Shown here in pieces: positions 23,556 to 32,706 of a stretch of DNA of 64,000 bases (position 1 is its first letter; each line of letters begins with the position of its first letter). Below the pieces are notes generated by a model, which ran no database searches, was not told where the DNA came from, and saw only the letters and a program-made list of their open reading frames with translations. Position numbers and translations under genes: made by a program. Origin of the DNA: Oceanobacter sp. (GTDB lineage: Bacteria; Pseudomonadota; Gammaproteobacteria; Pseudomonadales; Oceanobacteraceae); NCBI GenBank assembly GCA_002733645.1, contig NVWL01000020.1:1-64000 (forward strand), written 5' to 3'.

Positions 23556-23990
23556 TCAAGTATTTGACTTGGCCGCCGCTTGTGACGCCATGCGACATCG
23601 CTCCGCTGGCACAGCTAACTGCACCAACATATATTGCTTAAAATCATCAGCGTAGGGCTGTGACTTTAACGCGTCTTCCATACAAGCAAGCCAAGCATCG
23701 CGTTCTGCTTCAGCAATCGGCATATGACTGTGCGCAGATGGTATAGCAATGGGCCCGTATTTTTCGCGAAATAAACGCGGACCGCCTAACCAACCACACA
23801 GAAAACGCGTGAGTTTATCGCGTGTCATTTCTAAGTCTGCTGGATGCATTGCACGAATGGTTTTGGCCACAGGTAAAACATCCATCGCATCGTAGAAAGC
23901 ATCGACGAGGGTTTTTATACCCTCGTATTCTCCGGCCGCTTTAAACGACGCATCGCCTACACCATAAGCTACGGTATTTTCTTGCGTCAT
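23556..23990 (-). CDS. Group II truncated haemoglobin, last gene of the condensin operon
   Basis: This 144-residue protein matches group II (TrHbO-type) truncated globins. Phe32-Tyr33 (B9/B10 region, AFYDAMD), FLCGWLGGPRLFREKYG, the proximal histidine at about His87 and Trp100 in ERDAWLACM (the G8 tryptophan of the group) align with TrHbO. Such globins bind O2, NO or CO and often protect against oxidative or nitrosative stress. The ATG at 23990 overlaps the mksB stop codon by one base (TGATG), so translation is probably coupled. A longer in-frame start inside mksB adds 31 residues absent from the family and is rejected. Its place in a condensin operon, where a nuclease gene might sit, is unusual. 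Confidence 0.9.
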   Translation of the reverse strand: MTQENTVAYGVGDASFKAAGEYEGIKTLVDAFYDAMDVLPVAKTIRAMHPADLEMTRDKLTRFLCGWLGGPRLFREKYGPIAIPSAHSHMPIAEAERDAWLACMEDALKSQPYADDFKQYMLVQLAVPAERCRMASQAAAKSNT

Positions 23991-26900
23991 CAGGCAAACT
24001 CTTCCATAAAGTCGAGTGACGCTTGATGGCGAATCGTCCGGCGATGGTTGGCCCACAACTCTTGCACTTTTTCTTGGTTGCATTGCTGACGATCAATCAA
24101 TACCCGCGTTTGCAACTCACCTTTTGTTTGGCCTCCCGCTAATGGCACTTTCGAGAACACAAACTGGTTAGACACAAGATCCATAAACGGCCCCGACTTG
24201 CTCGTCGGCATGATGAACAATAACTGCAAACCTAAGCTTTCCGTCAGGTAGTTGATCACTTCTTTTGAGCGAGTTTCATCCATTTTCGAGAAAGCCTCAT
24301 CCACCAGCACGACACGTAGGTGCGTATCACCTTCGTTAAAGCGGAAAGCGGAGGTAATCGCTGCCGAACGAATAATGTACGCGGGTGTTTCTAACTGACC
24401 ACCCGACCCAGTACCGTATTGGCTGAGTGCAATGGGCTCTTTGTTCGCAGGCTGCTTATAAATTTCGTACGCGCGGTAATTACGGTAATCAGAAATACGC
24501 TCTAGCTCGCGCATGGCTTTCTGTTCGTCGTCTTCCAGCAACATACTCATTAAGTGATCGCGCACTTTGATTGAACTGGCGGATAACTCGGCAGTGAACA
24601 AGGTGGCGCCATCACCAAGGGCTGGGTTTTTAATCACTTCGTCGAAGAACTGCCAGTATTCTTTATACTCTGGCACCCACTCCCAATCGAACCAATAAGT
24701 TTCGCGGTCAGCTCCGAAGCGATGATGAGCGAGTTCTTTATTGAGGTCTTCCAGAATGCGTTTACCGTCATTAATCGACTGGTAAATCGAGTGACACAAG
24801 TTAGTAACGAATACGTTGTTAAAGCTTTCGCGTAGCTGGTGCAACTTGTCTTGTTTTTCAACCAGAATATTATTCTTAAGACGATTGTGAATACGCTCTA
24901 TCTCACGCTGCAAGCCACACACATCGGTAAAGAACTTCGCGCCGTGCTCATCACGGTAATCCGGCGTATAAACAATGGAGTCTGCCGTTTGGCAACGCTG
25001 ATTATGTTCTGTGATATTGCGTTCAATTTCATAAGCGGTGGCGTTTAATTCTTGCGCCACCGATTTACGCAGATTTTCAATCGCCTCGACCGGGCTTTCT
25101 TCCGCTTCTTTGTCCGACTGCTCAAGGCGTTTTTCTAAATTAAAGTCTGGCCAAATACTCACGATAGAACGCAGAGCGTCTTCCTTAGCATCCGCCACAT
25201 CGGACGTTTGTTCTTGATGCTCACTCAAAGCCTTACAGGCTTTTTCAGCGTCGTTCAGCTGCTGCTGCAAGCGCCCTAACTCGCCGTCCAGCTCTTTAAT
25301 TTGTGCGTCTAAGTCGTCAGCTTTGCCTTTCAGTGCGGTAAATTCGTGCTCAATATCACCAAAGCTGCTGGTGTCTACACCGCCTAAAGAATCTTCCGCT
25401 TGCTGCATTTGATACTGGGTGTCCAGCATGGCCTGCATTTGATCAGCAAACGAAACATGACGCAGTAAATTCACGGCATCCAATAATTGCTGTGCTTGGC
25501 GCAATTGAAAATTTGCTTCGTTAGCCACATCTTCCAACGTATGTAGCTCGCTGCGTTTTGCTGCCAAGGCGCGTTCTCGTGCCCCCATGCCAAAGACCAG
25601 CTCGGTGTCGTCTACATCACAACGATAGATCGAGTATGAACCAGAACCCAGACCTTCCTTCGTAACGCCACGGCGCGTCATTCGCAGTGCCTGCAAATCT
25701 GCAACTTGTTCAACACTGCCGTAACTGGCTTCAAGGTAATAACGTGCGGTGGCGTGATCAAAGTCCATTAAATCGATAATCGACTTGGAGGAAATTTTCA
25801 TGCGCTCGCTGTCTTTCTTGGCTTTTTCCCCTTGAATAACACGAGCACGACTGCCACCTGGGATCTGACGTAAAATATGCGCAGCTTCGGCTTCGAAGGC
25901 GGTCTCCACGATGATGCTGAAACGTGCACCGCCGATGTAACCCTCAATAGCGCTCTGCCATTCTGGGTCAGTGACTTCTACGTAGTCGGCTAATACACGC
26001 GGTTCCGCTTGTGGGCATTCACGCATGATGGCTTCAAGGGCTATACGTACAAAGCCCGGATAGTTCAACTGGCGCGATTCAAGGCTGGCAATGTCATTTT
26101 GCTTTTGCACCATGCGGTGCTGAGCTTGCTGCAGCTTTTGCTCTCGGCGATCAGCCACGCGAGCGATTTGATCTCGTAATGAAATGCCGCTGCTTTCAAG
26201 TTCGGTATCATGAAAACGATCACGCCATTGATTCACTAACGCTTGCTGTTCACGTGCATCATCTAAGTGAGCTTCAAGCGGTGCTAGATCAACCCAATCT
26301 TTACCGAGTAGCTTACGGAAATCGACCGCACCCTGATCTTTAATGGCTAAGACTTTGCGCGCTTGCTCGGCAATTTTTTTACTGCCCAGCGTTGGGATTT
26401 CTGCTGCCACATTCGTCTTTTGCAAAGCCCCATACAAAAGCTCGGTGGCACGTAATGAGGCTTGCAACATTTGATCTTGTTCAAGCAATGGAATCGCTTG
26501 CGCTTGCAACTTGGCCTTGCCGTCGGCAATGGCTTGCTCGGCGGCGTCTTTATCTTGCAGGGCGTCAATGCCACGACGACGCGCTTCCATCGTAATCAAT
26601 TGCTCGCGCACTTGCTTACGGCGGTCTTGTGAAACATCACGTTCTTTTTGCGTTTTGTTTAATAACTCACGTACTTGCTGCTGTACTTCTTTGGCGTGCA
26701 GGTAGTTCTTTTGATCATTTAAGTAACGACTACGAGCGGCGGTGTATTCCAGTACGTTGTAATCGATCCATTGATCAATATAGCGCCCAGAGGCTTCGCG
26801 AGTACCGTTTAATATTTCAATCGTTTCAGCCAAGGTGTTGGCGTCGGACTCCATCGCGTAGATGGTTTTCATCAGATCAGACACGCTGCGAATCGCATCG

Positions 26901-27631
26901 CCCATGTCTTTGGCTTCGAGGATTTCGTTGGCCACAAACCCATTGATACTTTTTACAGGCTTGTAGGCCATAAAACGCGAGAAGGTTCGCGCCGCATTCA
27001 TAGCTTCACGCTCTGGCACCGCATCAGTACGGCCACGCAGCGCACCGTATAAACGACGCAGGTACTGCTTTTTGGTATCGTATTTTTCGACGTGATTCGG
27101 GTCCATACGCTGAGCCAAATTTTTGGTCAGTTTATTCAGCGGAATCACTTCTTGCTGACTGTCGTTCACAGTCACTAGAAAATCGTTTTGCGTCAGCTCT
27201 TGGCCCGCAACAATATAAAACTGCAAATCGTTTTGGCGCGCCACAGGCTGGCTGCCAGCGCGATCTACCGAAGCACTCACCCCGATGATCGCCGTAAATG
27301 GCTCGCCACTTTCACCTGTGGTCGGATGAAAGACCGCTGCTAAATAGCCGACAGCACCGTTTGGACGTGCGTAACTGCCGTCATCACAACCCAATACATA
27401 CGACGCCAACGTACGGACGTTTTTACCACGACCACGCTGGGTGGCTTCGTCTTGGCCTGGGTTGTAATGGAATAAGGTATCGTGCGCTGCCGTCATGATG
27501 GTCTGCACAGCATCCGCAGCGGTAGTTTTACCCGAACCATTGCCGCCCGAAAGCAGGTTGATTGGGCCGAATTCAAATTCAGTCGCTGGGATATTACCCC
27601 AGTTGATGTATACAAATTTCTTTAAAAACAC
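23990..27631 (-). CDS. mksB: SMC-like condensin ATPase MksB (JetC-like)
   Basis: This 1213-residue protein is the SMC-type motor of an Mks condensin. Walker A is GGNGSGKT (29-36) and the ABC signature is GTGSGGQLETP (about 1073). Walker B is VVLVDEAFSKMDE (about 1107). Between the two ATPase halves lie long coiled coils with a hinge near the middle (around 530-640, with YVEVTDPEWQSAIEGYIGGARFSIIVE). Partners are the kleisin-like MksF and MksE, encoded just upstream. The complex compacts DNA. In Wadjet a fourth protein (JetD/MksG) adds nuclease activity against plasmids. It starts two bases after mksE and overlaps the globin gene by one base. Length fits known MksB/JetC proteins. Confidence 0.88.
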   Translation of the reverse strand: MFLKKFVYINWGNIPATEFEFGPINLLSGGNGSGKTTAADAVQTIMTAAHDTLFHYNPGQDEATQRGRGKNVRTLASYVLGCDDGSYARPNGAVGYLAAVFHPTTGESGEPFTAIIGVSASVDRAGSQPVARQNDLQFYIVAGQELTQNDFLVTVNDSQQEVIPLNKLTKNLAQRMDPNHVEKYDTKKQYLRRLYGALRGRTDAVPEREAMNAARTFSRFMAYKPVKSINGFVANEILEAKDMGDAIRSVSDLMKTIYAMESDANTLAETIEILNGTREASGRYIDQWIDYNVLEYTAARSRYLNDQKNYLHAKEVQQQVRELLNKTQKERDVSQDRRKQVREQLITMEARRRGIDALQDKDAAEQAIADGKAKLQAQAIPLLEQDQMLQASLRATELLYGALQKTNVAAEIPTLGSKKIAEQARKVLAIKDQGAVDFRKLLGKDWVDLAPLEAHLDDAREQQALVNQWRDRFHDTELESSGISLRDQIARVADRREQKLQQAQHRMVQKQNDIASLESRQLNYPGFVRIALEAIMRECPQAEPRVLADYVEVTDPEWQSAIEGYIGGARFSIIVETAFEAEAAHILRQIPGGSRARVIQGEKAKKDSERMKISSKSIIDLMDFDHATARYYLEASYGSVEQVADLQALRMTRRGVTKEGLGSGSYSIYRCDVDDTELVFGMGARERALAAKRSELHTLEDVANEANFQLRQAQQLLDAVNLLRHVSFADQMQAMLDTQYQMQQAEDSLGGVDTSSFGDIEHEFTALKGKADDLDAQIKELDGELGRLQQQLNDAEKACKALSEHQEQTSDVADAKEDALRSIVSIWPDFNLEKRLEQSDKEAEESPVEAIENLRKSVAQELNATAYEIERNITEHNQRCQTADSIVYTPDYRDEHGAKFFTDVCGLQREIERIHNRLKNNILVEKQDKLHQLRESFNNVFVTNLCHSIYQSINDGKRILEDLNKELAHHRFGADRETYWFDWEWVPEYKEYWQFFDEVIKNPALGDGATLFTAELSASSIKVRDHLMSMLLEDDEQKAMRELERISDYRNYRAYEIYKQPANKEPIALSQYGTGSGGQLETPAYIIRSAAITSAFRFNEGDTHLRVVLVDEAFSKMDETRSKEVINYLTESLGLQLLFIMPTSKSGPFMDLVSNQFVFSKVPLAGGQTKGELQTRVLIDRQQCNQEKVQELWANHRRTIRHQASLDFMEEFA

Positions 27632-27633
27632 GA

Positions 27634-28569
27634 TTATTCTCCGAACAGACTGACGGGCTGTTTCTTTTCAGGCTCGCCGGATTCATCTCCGGAAACATCC
27701 TGTTCGCTTACTGTTGCTTCACGCTCTGTGTCTTCAGGCTCTGTAGCTTCAATATCTGCTTTCGACGACTCTGTAGCCTCAGCGGTTGCTGAGTCTGATT
27801 CAGGAACGTCTTCTGATGCCTCTTCGCTAGATTCATCCGCTACATCATCCTTTGCAGGTTCAGCTTCTACTGCGGTTTCAGACAAAGACTCTTGTGCTGT
27901 TTCAGGCAAAGACTCGGGAGCGGCTCCTTCATCACTCGCTTCGTCTTCATCACCCATAAGTTCGGTGAGTACTTGATCACTGACGTAACTCATGATCATT
28001 GGGCGGATTCGTAACCAAACATCGCCATCTTCTACTGAGTCTTCATTCTGAAGTTGGATCAAACGCATCTGACGCAGTTTACGGAACATTATTTTACGGT
28101 CGGTAACGTTCTCAGGCAGGCTGCGTTTTAATAGATTTTTCATCGCGATGCTTAGGCCTTCAAACGAGACCATGACACACCCTTGCTCATCCACCGCACC
28201 TTCGCGCAAGGCTTTATCGTACTGCGCACGTAACACCAAAATCAGCGCTACTTCGTTTTGATTCAAGCGCTGGCGAAACGACGGACTACCAGAGAATTCT
28301 TGATCTTCTTCCATGCCCGGCACTTGTGAACCCGGCGGGTACAAACGGACAAATTGAAAACGACGATCGTGCTGAATACGAATCCCCAGTATTGAAAGAT
28401 ACTCTCCAATCAATTCTTCGATACGAACATAACGGTCGTATAAGGTTTGCTCAATTTGGGATTCATCACGGCATATCACGCCGTAATCAAGCAGGCGAAC
28501 CAACAACTCAGAATATTCTTTCTGGTTCAGGCCTTCTTTATCTAATGCTCTTTCTATTTCATGCAACAT
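27634..28569 (-). CDS. mksE: Condensin accessory subunit MksE (JetB-like, DUF4194) with long acidic tail
   Basis: This 311-residue protein has a winged-helix DUF4194-type body at about residues 1-205 that matches MksE/JetB (for example [20 protein letters not shown] and [14 protein letters not shown]). MksE is thought to bind the kleisin and DNA. The last 105 residues are a low-complexity acidic tail, mainly Glu, Asp, Ser, Ala and Thr, ending in [10 protein letters not shown]. The core family is about 200-230 residues, so the tail is an extension. It could shield DNA-binding surfaces or recruit partners, but this is inference. It is 28 bp from mksF and two bases from mksB. Confidence 0.85.
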
Positions 28570-28597
28570 AATCAGAATTCTTTTTAGTTAGCCCGGC

Positions 28598-30058
28598 TCA
28601 AGACTGCTTCTGAACCAATTCAAAGGTGAAGTGATCTTTCTTAATAAAGTATCCGTCACCACCTTCCTGACGAGGGTTTTCATCATAATCAATGAGGAAT
28701 TCAAACTCAGAGGACAAGCCATCTGCCGCCCCTAAGCTAATGGCATGCGCCACTGCAATAAAATCCTGTGCGGTATCGATGGGGATATCGCGGGTTGAGA
28801 CTTTTTTACCCGAACTTAACTTGCTGCTCATAAAGCTACGCATTGCTTGCTGATTCACCAAGAAAGCCTGATCCAGAACTTGCTGCACATAAATTTCACG
28901 GCGTGCATCAACATCAAAGTCACCTTTACCATCGTCGAGTGAGGCTTCAATAACCTGACGTGTTCTTGGGGCATGCATACGTACCTGAGCGGGATCAACC
29001 AAGCGAATCTGCGGCACTTCCATTAATAACCCGGCTCGCTCTAGCGCCTCGGTTTGAGCGTCTTCAGACATTTCTGTTAGCTTACGGCATACCGATAGTA
29101 CGTCATTGTGTTGCTGCGACGCTAAGTAGCTCATTTGACGAATGATGATGTCAGCACGTTTGGTAAAGCTCTGAAGCGCACGACGCAACGCCGGTAGCAT
29201 GATGTCGCTGGCGTTACGGAGGCGCACTTCGATGCCATCAAGCAGCGTCCACAGTACCGACTGGCCTTCATGGGTAAGATCTGGCAAGAGCGCACGCAAG
29301 CGCTTCTCGGCTTCTGCTTTGAAAGCAACGTCTCGTTTACGAATACCGTTAATCAGCCCCTGAATTTGATCTCGGTGCTTTTCTACGTTATCGGCAGATA
29401 GGCGTACGGATAAATCAGGCTGAAAGCGATTCTCCATAAAATCAAAGAAGGCTTCACTGGCGCGCTGCACAAGCAGTTGATCACCCATTTCACGGACGAG
29501 GTCTCGTTTGCGCTCTTCAAGCTCTGCGATCACATCGGTAAAATCACTGATAATTTGCTCAGAGTACTCATATGCATCTAGAAGATCGTAGATGTCTCCA
29601 CGCTCAAGAAACGATTCCAGTGAATTACGTGTGTTTCGAGTGTTTCGGTGGCGAGTATGCGCCATCGCCCGACTTTGGGCGTTGAAGGGTTCCGTAAACT
29701 GGCGACCATAGCGCGTGAATGCAAAGGTGCTTTGCATATTGGCTTCGTCGACTTGCTTCTCAATCCAGCCATAATCCAGCAATTGATTCAGCACCCAGCT
29801 TGCCTGCTCACGACTGTTACGAAAGCGCCCTTCTGGTGCGTCTTCTTCGCTGTCATAGCCGTCAGCCAGTACAGGGGCTCGGACTAATGCTTCTTGGAAG
29901 ATTTCTACGACGGTATCTCGCTGGATCGCCTGACCGTAGTCGGCGCTGCTAGAGCTATAGAGCCTCTGATAAAGCTCCCGCAGGCACTCCATTACCTGCG
30001 CCCGGTACTTCCCGGTAAGTGGGCGGAAAAACTGCCCTCGTTCCTGCTCAAAAAACAT
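28598..30058 (-). CDS. mksF: Condensin kleisin-like subunit MksF (JetA-like)
   Basis: This 486-residue protein matches the kleisin-like MksF/JetA subunit that bridges the two heads of an SMC dimer. An N-terminal winged-helix region (about 1-120, with FRPLTGKYRAQVMECLRELYQRLY) is followed by a helical middle and a C-terminal segment (about 400-486). It is the first gene of the operon, with mksE next. Recognition rests on sequence pattern and the characteristic F-E-B gene order. No promoter was identified with confidence in the 240 bp shared with the divergent kinase gene. Confidence 0.85.
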   Translation of the reverse strand: MFFEQERGQFFRPLTGKYRAQVMECLRELYQRLYSSSSADYGQAIQRDTVVEIFQEALVRAPVLADGYDSEEDAPEGRFRNSREQASWVLNQLLDYGWIEKQVDEANMQSTFAFTRYGRQFTEPFNAQSRAMAHTRHRNTRNTRNSLESFLERGDIYDLLDAYEYSEQIISDFTDVIAELEERKRDLVREMGDQLLVQRASEAFFDFMENRFQPDLSVRLSADNVEKHRDQIQGLINGIRKRDVAFKAEAEKRLRALLPDLTHEGQSVLWTLLDGIEVRLRNASDIMLPALRRALQSFTKRADIIIRQMSYLASQQHNDVLSVCRKLTEMSEDAQTEALERAGLLMEVPQIRLVDPAQVRMHAPRTRQVIEASLDDGKGDFDVDARREIYVQQVLDQAFLVNQQAMRSFMSSKLSSGKKVSTRDIPIDTAQDFIAVAHAISLGAADGLSSEFEFLIDYDENPRQEGGDGYFIKKDHFTFELVQKQS

Positions 30059-30297
30059 ACAATCTCTTAATTCACAGCGCGATTCAAACGCAGTAGATTA
30101 CTGAAACCAGCGGCCCTTTGCCAGCCTCATGAGACAACGATCACAACCTTGTCTCTACAAACTGCATAGACGCTCGATTTATGACTATACTGGCCTAATC
30201 AGAATATTAACAAAACGCCGCTTTCAGAGTTCATATAGTCCGCAAAAGTTGAGTTCCAAGTGGTGGCTACGAGCGAGTAATAGCAAAAGGATTCGTG

Positions 30298-32706
30298 ATG
30301 CCCATACACAAGGACACACTTACTCAAAAACTGGTTCTTTTAACCTCTTGTCGGTCACTAGTCAGGCTGCTTATCGCGGCCATATTGCTGATATCGGTCA
30401 CTATCCAAGCAGAAACACTGCCCCTAACCAAGGCAGGGCACCACCCAACAGGCACTCACTGGCAATATCAGGAATCTCCAGCCATAGCGCCTATTTATAT
30501 ATCCACTAAGTTTACCAACATCATCAGCTCAACTGATTGGACAGTGAATACCCACGACTATATTAACTTTGGATTTAGGCGGAATGCTTATTGGTTAAAA
30601 ATGGAGCTGAACAACCTGACGGATGATGAGTGGTTTCTTTGGAATCATTATTCTTTACTCGACACCGTTGCCTTGTATATTTGCCCTAGCCGAACTGAAA
30701 ACTCAGAGCTATGTAGCGTCCAATATGGCGGTGATCTACACCCTTATCATCCGCGTGCAGTGGATCATCCAAATTTGATTTTCCCTCTTAATTTAGAAAA
30801 AAATACGTCTTACGACTTGTACTTGTATGTGGCGACCGAAGGCACTTACCAACTGCCCCTAGAAATTATCGATTCAAAATCACTCAACCAGAACTTACTA
30901 AATAACAACCTACTTCGCGGCGGCTATTACGCAGTTATGCTGGCAATGGGGTTATATAATCTCATGCTATTTTTTGCTATTCGTGATCGCACGTACTTTT
31001 TGTATTCTACCTTTGTCTTAAGTTTTTTATTCTTCCATATGAATTTCGAAGGCTCAGCTTTTGGCTATTTTTGGCCTGAACAACCTCACTGGAATAAGGT
31101 GATGATGCCTTTATCGTTCGCGATAACCCAGTTCTTCTTTAGTCTATTTTTACCTCGAATATTGGAACTTAAAAAATACGCGCCATCTAGTTGGCTCCTC
31201 TACCGAATTTATACGCCCGTCACCGTACTGTTTATGGTTCTCGCTTTTGTTGCACCCTATTACTTCTCCGTTTCATTACAAAATCTTGTTAACTCTGTAG
31301 TTGCGGTTTACACACTCATCGTCGCCATACGCGTTTGGCGGCTGGGTCACAAACCGGCTCGTTTGTTCACGCTTGCATGGATTACTTTTATTATTGGTAC
31401 AATCTTAGGAAACATTAGTTCGTTAGGTATTGTTCCCCGCAATGCCCTTGTTCTTTATGGCTACCAAATTGGCTCTATACTTGATGTTATTTTGCTGTCC
31501 TTGGCACTTGGTGCACAGATAAATCAGTTGCGATCCGATAGAGAGAAAGACCAACAACGATTAAATAAAAGCCAAGTAGAAGCGATCAATAATCTAAAGA
31601 AATATGAAGACCTCTATCAAAATGCAATTGCTGGGCGCTTCCAGTTAAATGGTCAGGGAGTTGTTACCGGCTGCAACCCTGCGTTTGCTAAAAACCTTGG
31701 CTATAAAAATGCCGACGACGTAATTGCCGCCCAACCTCACATAGATCAGTTTATTCGCGCTCCGGAAGCAGCGGTTGAGCTATGGCAAACACTTCAGAAA
31801 AAAGAACAAATACAAGGGTATCAAATATCAATGATGCCGCGCAGAGGTAAAGCTGTAGAGGGTATTTTAACCATGCGCCGAGAGCCAAACTCTGCAACGC
31901 AATATTGGGTTGGATCATTGATTGATATTACAGAAAGCTATGAGCGTGAACTGGAACTAGAACGCTTGGAAGAGACTCGTGACCTCTCCGTTCGGCAGCT
32001 TGTGATGGGGATATCCCACGAGATGAATACACCTATTGGTAATATTCGCTTAGCCAGCAGCCACCTAAGCGAACAACTGGGCCTCGTAGCTCCGCCTCAA
32101 TTAAAAGGCGAACTTGATGAAGGTGTTCAACATATATCCCATAGCATTGATCGGCTGGTTGAATTAAATGATGTAATTCAATCCTCTCTGGCAGAGTCAA
32201 CAGAATACAAACCAGAAAGTACGCATCTACATACATGGTTAAGATCATGGAAAGAACGTACACACAACCGCTTTGATTTTTTGGATATTGAAGTTATTTG
32301 CACACCTGAAAATAGCTTATGGCATGGCCATGTTGAAATTTTCGATGATATCTTACTGCAACTTATCGATAACAGCGTCACTCACAATCCAGACTTGTAT
32401 GCAGACAATAAATTATATGTTCGAGTGTCTGCTGCACTTTATCAAGGTACTTTGAATTTACAGTATCAAGATAACGGCAAAGGGGTTAGGAAAGAAGATC
32501 AGGATAAAGTTATGTTACCTTTTTATACAACGCAAAGAACCCGTGCAAAAAAGAAAGGGCTCGGGATGTTCGAGGTACATAATTTAATAACACGTATAAT
32601 GAAAGGCTATATTGAATGGCCAACCACAAGTACAGGGTTTGCAATAATCCTTATTTTACCCGATTTCAATCAACATGAAGAAACAAACGATGGCATCTCT
32701 GTATGA
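30298..32706 (+). CDS. 7TMR-DISM sensor histidine kinase with PAS domain
   Basis: This 802-residue sensor has a signal peptide, a periplasmic 7TMR-DISM extracellular domain (about residues 45-180), seven membrane helices (about 190-400), a PAS domain (about 430-550) and a histidine kinase module. The phosphorylated histidine is in ISHEMNTPIGN. The ATP-binding N box is LIDNSVTHNP, with glycine boxes DNGKGV and KGLGMFEV. There is no receiver domain. The ligand may be a carbohydrate or other small molecule, as the DISM fold suggests. The ATG at 30298 is preferred to the GTG three bases earlier, given AAAAGG upstream. No response regulator gene is adjacent, so its partner is encoded elsewhere. 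Confidence 0.9.
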   Translation: MPIHKDTLTQKLVLLTSCRSLVRLLIAAILLISVTIQAETLPLTKAGHHPTGTHWQYQESPAIAPIYISTKFTNIISSTDWTVNTHDYINFGFRRNAYWLKMELNNLTDDEWFLWNHYSLLDTVALYICPSRTENSELCSVQYGGDLHPYHPRAVDHPNLIFPLNLEKNTSYDLYLYVATEGTYQLPLEIIDSKSLNQNLLNNNLLRGGYYAVMLAMGLYNLMLFFAIRDRTYFLYSTFVLSFLFFHMNFEGSAFGYFWPEQPHWNKVMMPLSFAITQFFFSLFLPRILELKKYAPSSWLLYRIYTPVTVLFMVLAFVAPYYFSVSLQNLVNSVVAVYTLIVAIRVWRLGHKPARLFTLAWITFIIGTILGNISSLGIVPRNALVLYGYQIGSILDVILLSLALGAQINQLRSDREKDQQRLNKSQVEAINNLKKYEDLYQNAIAGRFQLNGQGVVTGCNPAFAKNLGYKNADDVIAAQPHIDQFIRAPEAAVELWQTLQKKEQIQGYQISMMPRRGKAVEGILTMRREPNSATQYWVGSLIDITESYERELELERLEETRDLSVRQLVMGISHEMNTPIGNIRLASSHLSEQLGLVAPPQLKGELDEGVQHISHSIDRLVELNDVIQSSLAESTEYKPESTHLHTWLRSWKERTHNRFDFLDIEVICTPENSLWHGHVEIFDDILLQLIDNSVTHNPDLYADNKLYVRVSAALYQGTLNLQYQDNGKGVRKEDQDKVMLPFYTTQRTRAKKKGLGMFEVHNLITRIMKGYIEWPTTSTGFAIILILPDFNQHEETNDGISV

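What the first reader, a model, noticed from the sequence alone, without database searches (positions are those of the whole stretch)
23556..30058. Condensin operon (mksF-mksE-mksB) with a truncated haemoglobin in place of the nuclease JetD/MksG
The sequence shows three genes with the order and features of the JetABC/MksFEB core, with 2-28 bp spacing. A group II globin then starts by a one-base overlap with the mksB stop codon. In Wadjet systems this core is followed by the nuclease JetD (MksG), and no nuclease or Toprim gene is present here. A gas/redox-sensing or detoxifying globin translated with an SMC motor would tie DNA compaction to oxygen, NO or redox state, or the globin may have simply replaced a lost gene. 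Either is unusual enough to be the best candidate for a new system in this window.
Basis: partly seen in the sequence, partly recalled or inferred. Interest (0 to 1): 0.85.

Follow-up and report, generated by a model that had tools for sequence, protein, structure and literature searches.

The report
JetD-less condensin operon with hitch-hiking globin
A marine bacterium's DNA-folding motor genes are followed by a small haemoglobin gene, but comparison with relatives suggests an ordinary globin that landed there once, in a spot where other relatives keep a DNA-cutting enzyme or unrelated genes.

Summary
In detail: mksF-mksE-mksB (JetA1/B1/C1), then a group II truncated globin whose ATG overlaps the mksB stop by one base (TGATG), and no jetD in the genome by two searches. 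The host is a Thalassolituus relative. The functional reading is not supported. mksB is core (43 of 44 family genomes). The globin follows mksB in 21 of 22 genomes of five genera, with one origin on the MksB tree, and in none of the others examined: 0 of 21 mksB-bearing genomes of the other three genera, 0 of 65 order loci, 0 of 13 class genomes. Similar globins in sister genera sit behind other genes: der (once with the same one-base overlap), or ppiC/pqiA downstream of minCD. Behind other mksB genes lie a complete JetD1 nuclease (17 of 79 in the order sample), upp, a pseudouridine synthase or an enoyl-CoA hydratase. So JetD was probably lost repeatedly, leaving a JetD-less condensin, and the position behind mksB is a variable slot. 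The globin is most likely a hitch-hiker, perhaps helped by a Shine-Dalgarno-like stretch in the last mksB codons. JetD-less Mks condensins are already described; the pairing itself turned up in none of three paper searches.

The parts
28598..30058 (-). mksF / JetA1 (kleisin), 486 aa
   Evidence: Pfam JetA 1.1e-28; PADLOC PDLC00445 754 bits
27634..28569 (-). mksE / JetB1 (KITE subunit), 311 aa with a ~106-aa acidic tail
   Evidence: Pfam DUF4194 4.2e-34; PADLOC PDLC00482 389 bits; tail
23990..27631 (-). mksB / JetC1 (SMC-like ATPase), 1213 aa
   Evidence: PADLOC PDLC00515 2025 bits over residues 1-1212; ATPase motifs invariant in A1
23999..24005 (-). GGAAGAG, Shine-Dalgarno-like, inside the last codons of mksB (M-E-E-F-A), 8 nt before the globin ATG
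   Evidence: read from the sequence; frequency in relatives; function inferred
23988..23992 (-). TGATG: mksB stop and globin start overlap by one base
23556..23990 (-). group II truncated haemoglobin (trHb2), 144 aa
   Evidence: Pfam Bac_globin 3.6e-23; best solved relative 2XYK 5.3e-18; Tyr B10, His CD1, His F8, Trp G8 (position names recalled)

Best explanation
This is a chromosomal, JetD-less MksBEF condensin (a Wadjet type I core, JetA1-B1-C1, without its nuclease), followed by an ordinary group II truncated globin that came to lie behind mksB once, in the ancestor of five genera of this family. MksFEB probably works as an ATP-driven DNA-loop motor on the chromosome beside SMC-ScpAB (inferred from families and from its core status). 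The globin is probably an O2/NO-handling haem protein (inferred from family) and is probably expressed from the mks transcript: a ribosome finishing mksB can re-initiate at the overlapping ATG, helped by the GGAAGAG in the last mksB codons (sequence shown, function inferred). The slot became free when JetD was lost (inferred); in other lineages it holds JetD1, upp, a pseudouridine synthase or an enoyl-CoA hydratase. No step of condensin action is expected to depend on the globin.
For: mksB in 43 of 44 family genomes; ScpA in 17 of 18 genomes searched, the own one included. Globin behind mksB in 21 of 22 genomes of genera g1, g2, g3, g5, g8 and in 0 of 21 mksB-bearing genomes of g4, g6, g7 (whole-locus recheck); one change on the MksB tree, SH-aLRT 97. 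Of 23 unlinked group II copies fetched from g4, g6 and g7, 16 (eight g4, six g7, two g6) fall among the linked ones in the globin tree and are 54-65% identical to the window globin, against 48-77% for linked ones. der lies directly upstream of 7 of the 8 g4 copies (one-base overlap in L159; the eighth is at a contig end), and ppiC or pqiA, downstream of minD where the locus reaches it, lies upstream of the g7 copies. JetD1 directly behind mksB in 17 of 79 order genomes and downstream of it in 7 of 13 class genomes, a 132-aa remnant in G227, convergent copies in G011 and G012; at least 11 changes of the adjacent-jetD label. Other slot genes.
Against: The pair has persisted in 21 of 22 genomes across five genera, with an overlap in 18 of 21, so shared expression may be selected. 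The exact ATGGA(A/G)GAG tail is commoner in linked family loci (19 of 21) than in unlinked ones (8 of 19), which could reflect selection for coupling or simply ancestry. I did not measure how long an average neutral neighbour pair survives in this clade. G033, the one exception, is a fragmentary MAG. Seven unlinked group II copies of g6 fall outside the main globin group (37-53% identity). The globin tree is weakly resolved inside the main group. No expression or interaction data were available.
Confidence: 0.8

Rival explanations
1. Redox- or gas-gated condensin: the globin binds MksBEF and couples DNA compaction to O2, NO or redox state.
For: Overlapping genes, TGATG or TAATG in 16 and ATGA in 2 of 21 linked genomes; persistence in five genera; Tyr B10, His F8 and Trp G8 kept in 21 of 21 linked globins, CD1 His in 17 and Tyr in 4.
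Against: Single origin; similar unlinked globins in sister genera that have the same condensin; the same type of globin overlaps der by one base in L159; 3 of 21 without overlap; the slot accepts unrelated genes; in all 21 linked loci a stop codon separates the two genes, so none is a fusion.
Confidence: 0.05
2. Expression-only linkage: the globin gains from the mks promoter, and the order is kept by selection for dose, without physical contact.
For: 18 of 21 junctions overlap; the Shine-Dalgarno-like tail is exact in 19 of 21 linked loci against 8 of 19 unlinked family loci.
Against: Three genomes have about 140-170 bp before the globin ORF; sister genera do without the linkage. The promoter scan of the region is at shuffle level (10 found, mean 9.5) and decides nothing.
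Confidence: 0.1
3. Still a defence system: MksFEB restricts plasmids with a JetD supplied in trans or with another nuclease.
For: PADLOC scores it as JetA1/B1/C1; ATPase motifs intact.
Against: No JetD in the own genome by two searches; a PF09983 match in only 3 of the 21 linked genomes, each on a contig other than that of mksB, in G035 with its own complete JetABCD; near-universal presence in the family is unlike a patchy defence system.
Confidence: 0.05

Closest known systems
Wadjet type I (JetABCD / MksBEFG)
   Same: JetA1, JetB1 and JetC1 in the same order with tight spacing; relatives of this very MksB subfamily carry JetD1 right behind
   Different: JetD absent from operon and genome; core in the family
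MksBEF of Pseudomonas aeruginosa
   Same: JetD-less Mks condensin coexisting with SMC (PMC7485682, start of abstract); [quoted passage not shown]
   Different: Sequence relation to the P. aeruginosa protein was not tested directly; a globin gene follows here. PMC10123090 (passages) also reports four-gene mksFEBG operons in Pseudomonas, e.g. strain PA14
Group II truncated haemoglobins (trHb2/HbO; 2XYK, 1UX8, 1NGK)
   Same: 2XYK 5.3e-18, 1UX8 8.3e-16, 1NGK 1e-8; Tyr B10, His CD1, His F8, Trp G8 (position names and the group II label recalled)
   Different: Only the genomic position behind mksB is unusual

Membership tests
Wadjet type I (JetABCD) | JetA-JetB-JetC core | tested here: met
   PADLOC JetA1, JetB1, JetC1 matches
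Wadjet type I (JetABCD) | JetD Toprim nuclease in the operon | tested here: not met
   no PF09983 match and no JetD1-type match in the own genome
Wadjet type I (JetABCD) | plasmid restriction | not testable with these tools
   needs transformation assays
JetD-less MksBEF condensin | MksF, MksE, MksB without MksG/JetD | tested here: met
JetD-less MksBEF condensin | coexists with SMC-ScpAB | tested here: met
   ScpA in the own genome, 6.3e-36; SMC and ScpB were not searched
JetD-less MksBEF condensin | acts in chromosome organisation | not testable with these tools
   only core presence (43 of 44) speaks for it
MukBEF | MukB N-terminal family | tested here: inconclusive
   PF04310 23 bits, at its cut-off of 23, over residues 4-70 only
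Group II truncated haemoglobin | 2/2 globin with proximal His F8 and Trp G8 | tested here: met
   (position names recalled)
Group II truncated haemoglobin | binds haem and O2/NO | not testable with these tools
   needs spectroscopy

The most novel reading that the evidence does not exclude
After it landed behind mksB, the globin was recruited as an oxygen- or NO-responsive regulator of the JetD-less condensin in five genera of this family, so that nucleoid compaction follows gas or redox state.
Probability: 0.05. Interest if true: 0.75.

Novelty: new member of a known kind. Interest (0 to 1): 0.22.

Why it matters
As a functional pair it probably matters little: the globin looks like a passenger. 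The useful by-product is evolutionary. One MksB subfamily shows operons with an intact JetD1 directly behind mksB, an apparent truncated JetD remnant, relocated JetD, and operons with none, and in this family the JetD-less form is core. That would make the proposed step from plasmid-defence Wadjet to housekeeping condensin testable in closely related bacteria.

Tried and rejected
Rejected: chance ORF (the globin scores 3.6e-23 and recurs in 20 further genomes). Rejected: JetD elsewhere in the own genome. Not found: the pairing outside the family. No globin in 65 loci from the 66 order genomes with MksB outside the family (G181, split over two contigs, was not fetched; L090 has only 430 bp downstream) nor in the loci of 13 class genomes, which have at most 1.5 kb of flank. 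A whole-locus tblastn recheck with 11 globin queries found none in 104 loci without a listed linked globin.

Led nowhere: MksE N-termini showed no obvious jetD-linked difference by eye (two of its rows, L091 and L096, were wrong ORFs and L080 is missing). The promoter and terminator scan was at shuffle level (10 against 9.5, 6 against 8.7). phmmer of MksB (E up to 1e-5) and MksF (up to 0.001) against solved chains found nothing. Paper searches: 'truncated hemoglobin' with 'condensin' gave 2 papers, unrelated by title and start of abstract, with 'Wadjet' 0, 'MksB' with 'globin' 0. A search for Pseudoalteromonas group II globins gave 1 paper, not read. No structure prediction was run: contact between two proteins cannot be tested with single-chain folding.

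Caveats: the MksB tree is a quick one with several long branches (among them L126, L125, L154); L154 (G042) is a frameshifted mksB read in one frame. Slot labels were set by me. The globin order search listed only its stronger matches, so adjacency outside the family was judged on the fetched loci. The globin of G005 (g4), of the other type by its match, was not fetched.

Full report
Observation. Four genes run on the minus strand: mksF 30058-28598, mksE 28569-27634, mksB 27631-23990 and a globin 23990-23556. Gaps are 28 bp and 2 bp, and the mksB stop overlaps the globin start by one base, TGATG. Pfam and PADLOC identify JetA1, JetB1, JetC1 and Bac_globin. The globin's best solved relative is 2XYK (5.3e-18), and it aligns with other HbO-type chains. 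Tyr B10, His CD1, His F8 and Trp G8 are present (position names and the group II label recalled).

Host. MksB is present in 43 of 44 genomes of the family at E up to 1e-50, and ScpA in 17 of 18 genomes searched, the own genome included. This looks like a core chromosomal condensin beside SMC-ScpAB, not a patchy defence island.

JetD. PF09983 finds no JetD in the own genome and finds one in 8 of 44 family genomes. An alignment of the JetD1 type that belongs to this MksB subfamily finds only G011 and G012 in the family, where it lies next to mksB in convergent orientation. Of the 21 globin-linked genomes, 3 (G027, G035, G043) have a PF09983 match, each on a contig other than that of mksB. In G035 it belongs to a separate complete JetA1-B1-C1-D1 operon; in G027 the matched stretch scores as JetD1 of another type; G043 was not looked at further.

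In the order sample 79 of 341 genomes have this MksB. A complete JetD1 lies directly behind mksB in 17 of the 79 (JetD1 families of representatives). One more genome, G099, has it far from mksB, and G227 keeps a 132-aa remnant. In the class sample 14 of 303 genomes have MksB, the own one included, and 7 of the other 13 have JetD1 downstream of mksB. On the MksB tree the adjacent-jetD label needs at least 11 changes. That jetD behind mksB is the old state, lost repeatedly, is my inference from its spread over families and orders; repeated gain is not excluded. A review proposes loss of JetD for P. aeruginosa MksBEF (PMC10586767, passages).

Globin linkage. The globin follows mksB in 21 of 22 genomes of genera g1, g2, g3, g5 and g8, and in none of the 21 mksB-bearing genomes of g4, g6 and g7 (recheck). 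The exception, G033, is a fragmentary MAG: its mksB contig has about 4 kb downstream without a globin, and its globin lies at the start of another contig. Of the 21 junctions 16 read TGATG or TAATG, 2 are ATGA overlaps, and 3 have no overlap. On the MksB tree the linked genomes form one clade, SH-aLRT 97. Outside the family no globin was found in 65 fetched order loci or in the loci of 13 class genomes.

Unlinked relatives. In g4 the globin follows bamB-der (7 of 8 fetched copies; the eighth is at a contig end), and in L159 der and the globin share one base, like mksB and the globin here. In g7 it follows ppiC or pqiA, downstream of minCD where the fetched locus reaches that far. In the globin tree the eight g4, six g7 and two g6 copies fall among the linked ones, though inner support is weak. 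Identity to the window globin is 56-65% for the g4 and g7 copies and 54 and 57% for those two g6 copies; the other seven group II copies of g6 are 37-53%, and linked copies are 48-77%. A second, distinct globin in G027, G028 and G035 is only 19-24% identical.

The slot. Behind mksB other lineages carry uracil phosphoribosyltransferase, a pseudouridine synthase or an enoyl-CoA hydratase, several of the first two starting within five bases of the mksB stop. The end of mksB reads ATGGA(A/G)GAG in 19 of 21 linked loci (and a related purine-rich stretch in the other 2), in 8 of 19 unlinked family loci, and in 13 of 65 order loci; looser Shine-Dalgarno-like stretches occur in 4 more unlinked family loci and 30 more order loci, and 7 and 22 have neither. 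It may help a gene that lands there to be translated, but it is not universal, and its excess in linked loci may be ancestry or selection.

Verdict. A JetD-less MksBEF condensin with a hitch-hiking trHb2. Shown: gene content, JetD absence by two searches, single origin and clade restriction of the pairing in what was examined, variable slot. Inferred: chromosomal condensin function, O2/NO role of the globin, translational coupling, JetD loss as direction of change. Not tested: interaction, transcription, and the neutral lifetime of neighbouring gene pairs.

Noticed in passing
27634-28569: MksE carries an acidic C-terminal tail of about 106 residues (38 D/E, 5 K/R). By ORF length MksE is 254-330 aa in the 21 linked loci and 221-263 aa in the 14 usable jetD-linked rows of 17 (start codons not refined).
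   Followed up: partly
L088 (G227), behind mksB: A 132-aa JetD1 remnant lies behind mksB: possibly nuclease loss in progress.
   Followed up: partly
L150 and L151 (G011, G012): JetD1 next to mksB but convergent to it, with the invariant E..D and GDLD residues kept.
   Followed up: partly
L189 (G035): A complete second JetA1-B1-C1-D1 operon in a genome that also has mksFEB-globin.
   Followed up: yes
30295-32706: A 7TMR-DISM histidine kinase divergent from mksF; its homologue keeps this place in g1, g2, g5, g7 and g8 loci but not in the g3 locus examined.
   Followed up: no
L154 (G042): mksB appears in two overlapping pieces in different frames: frameshift or sequencing error.
   Followed up: no
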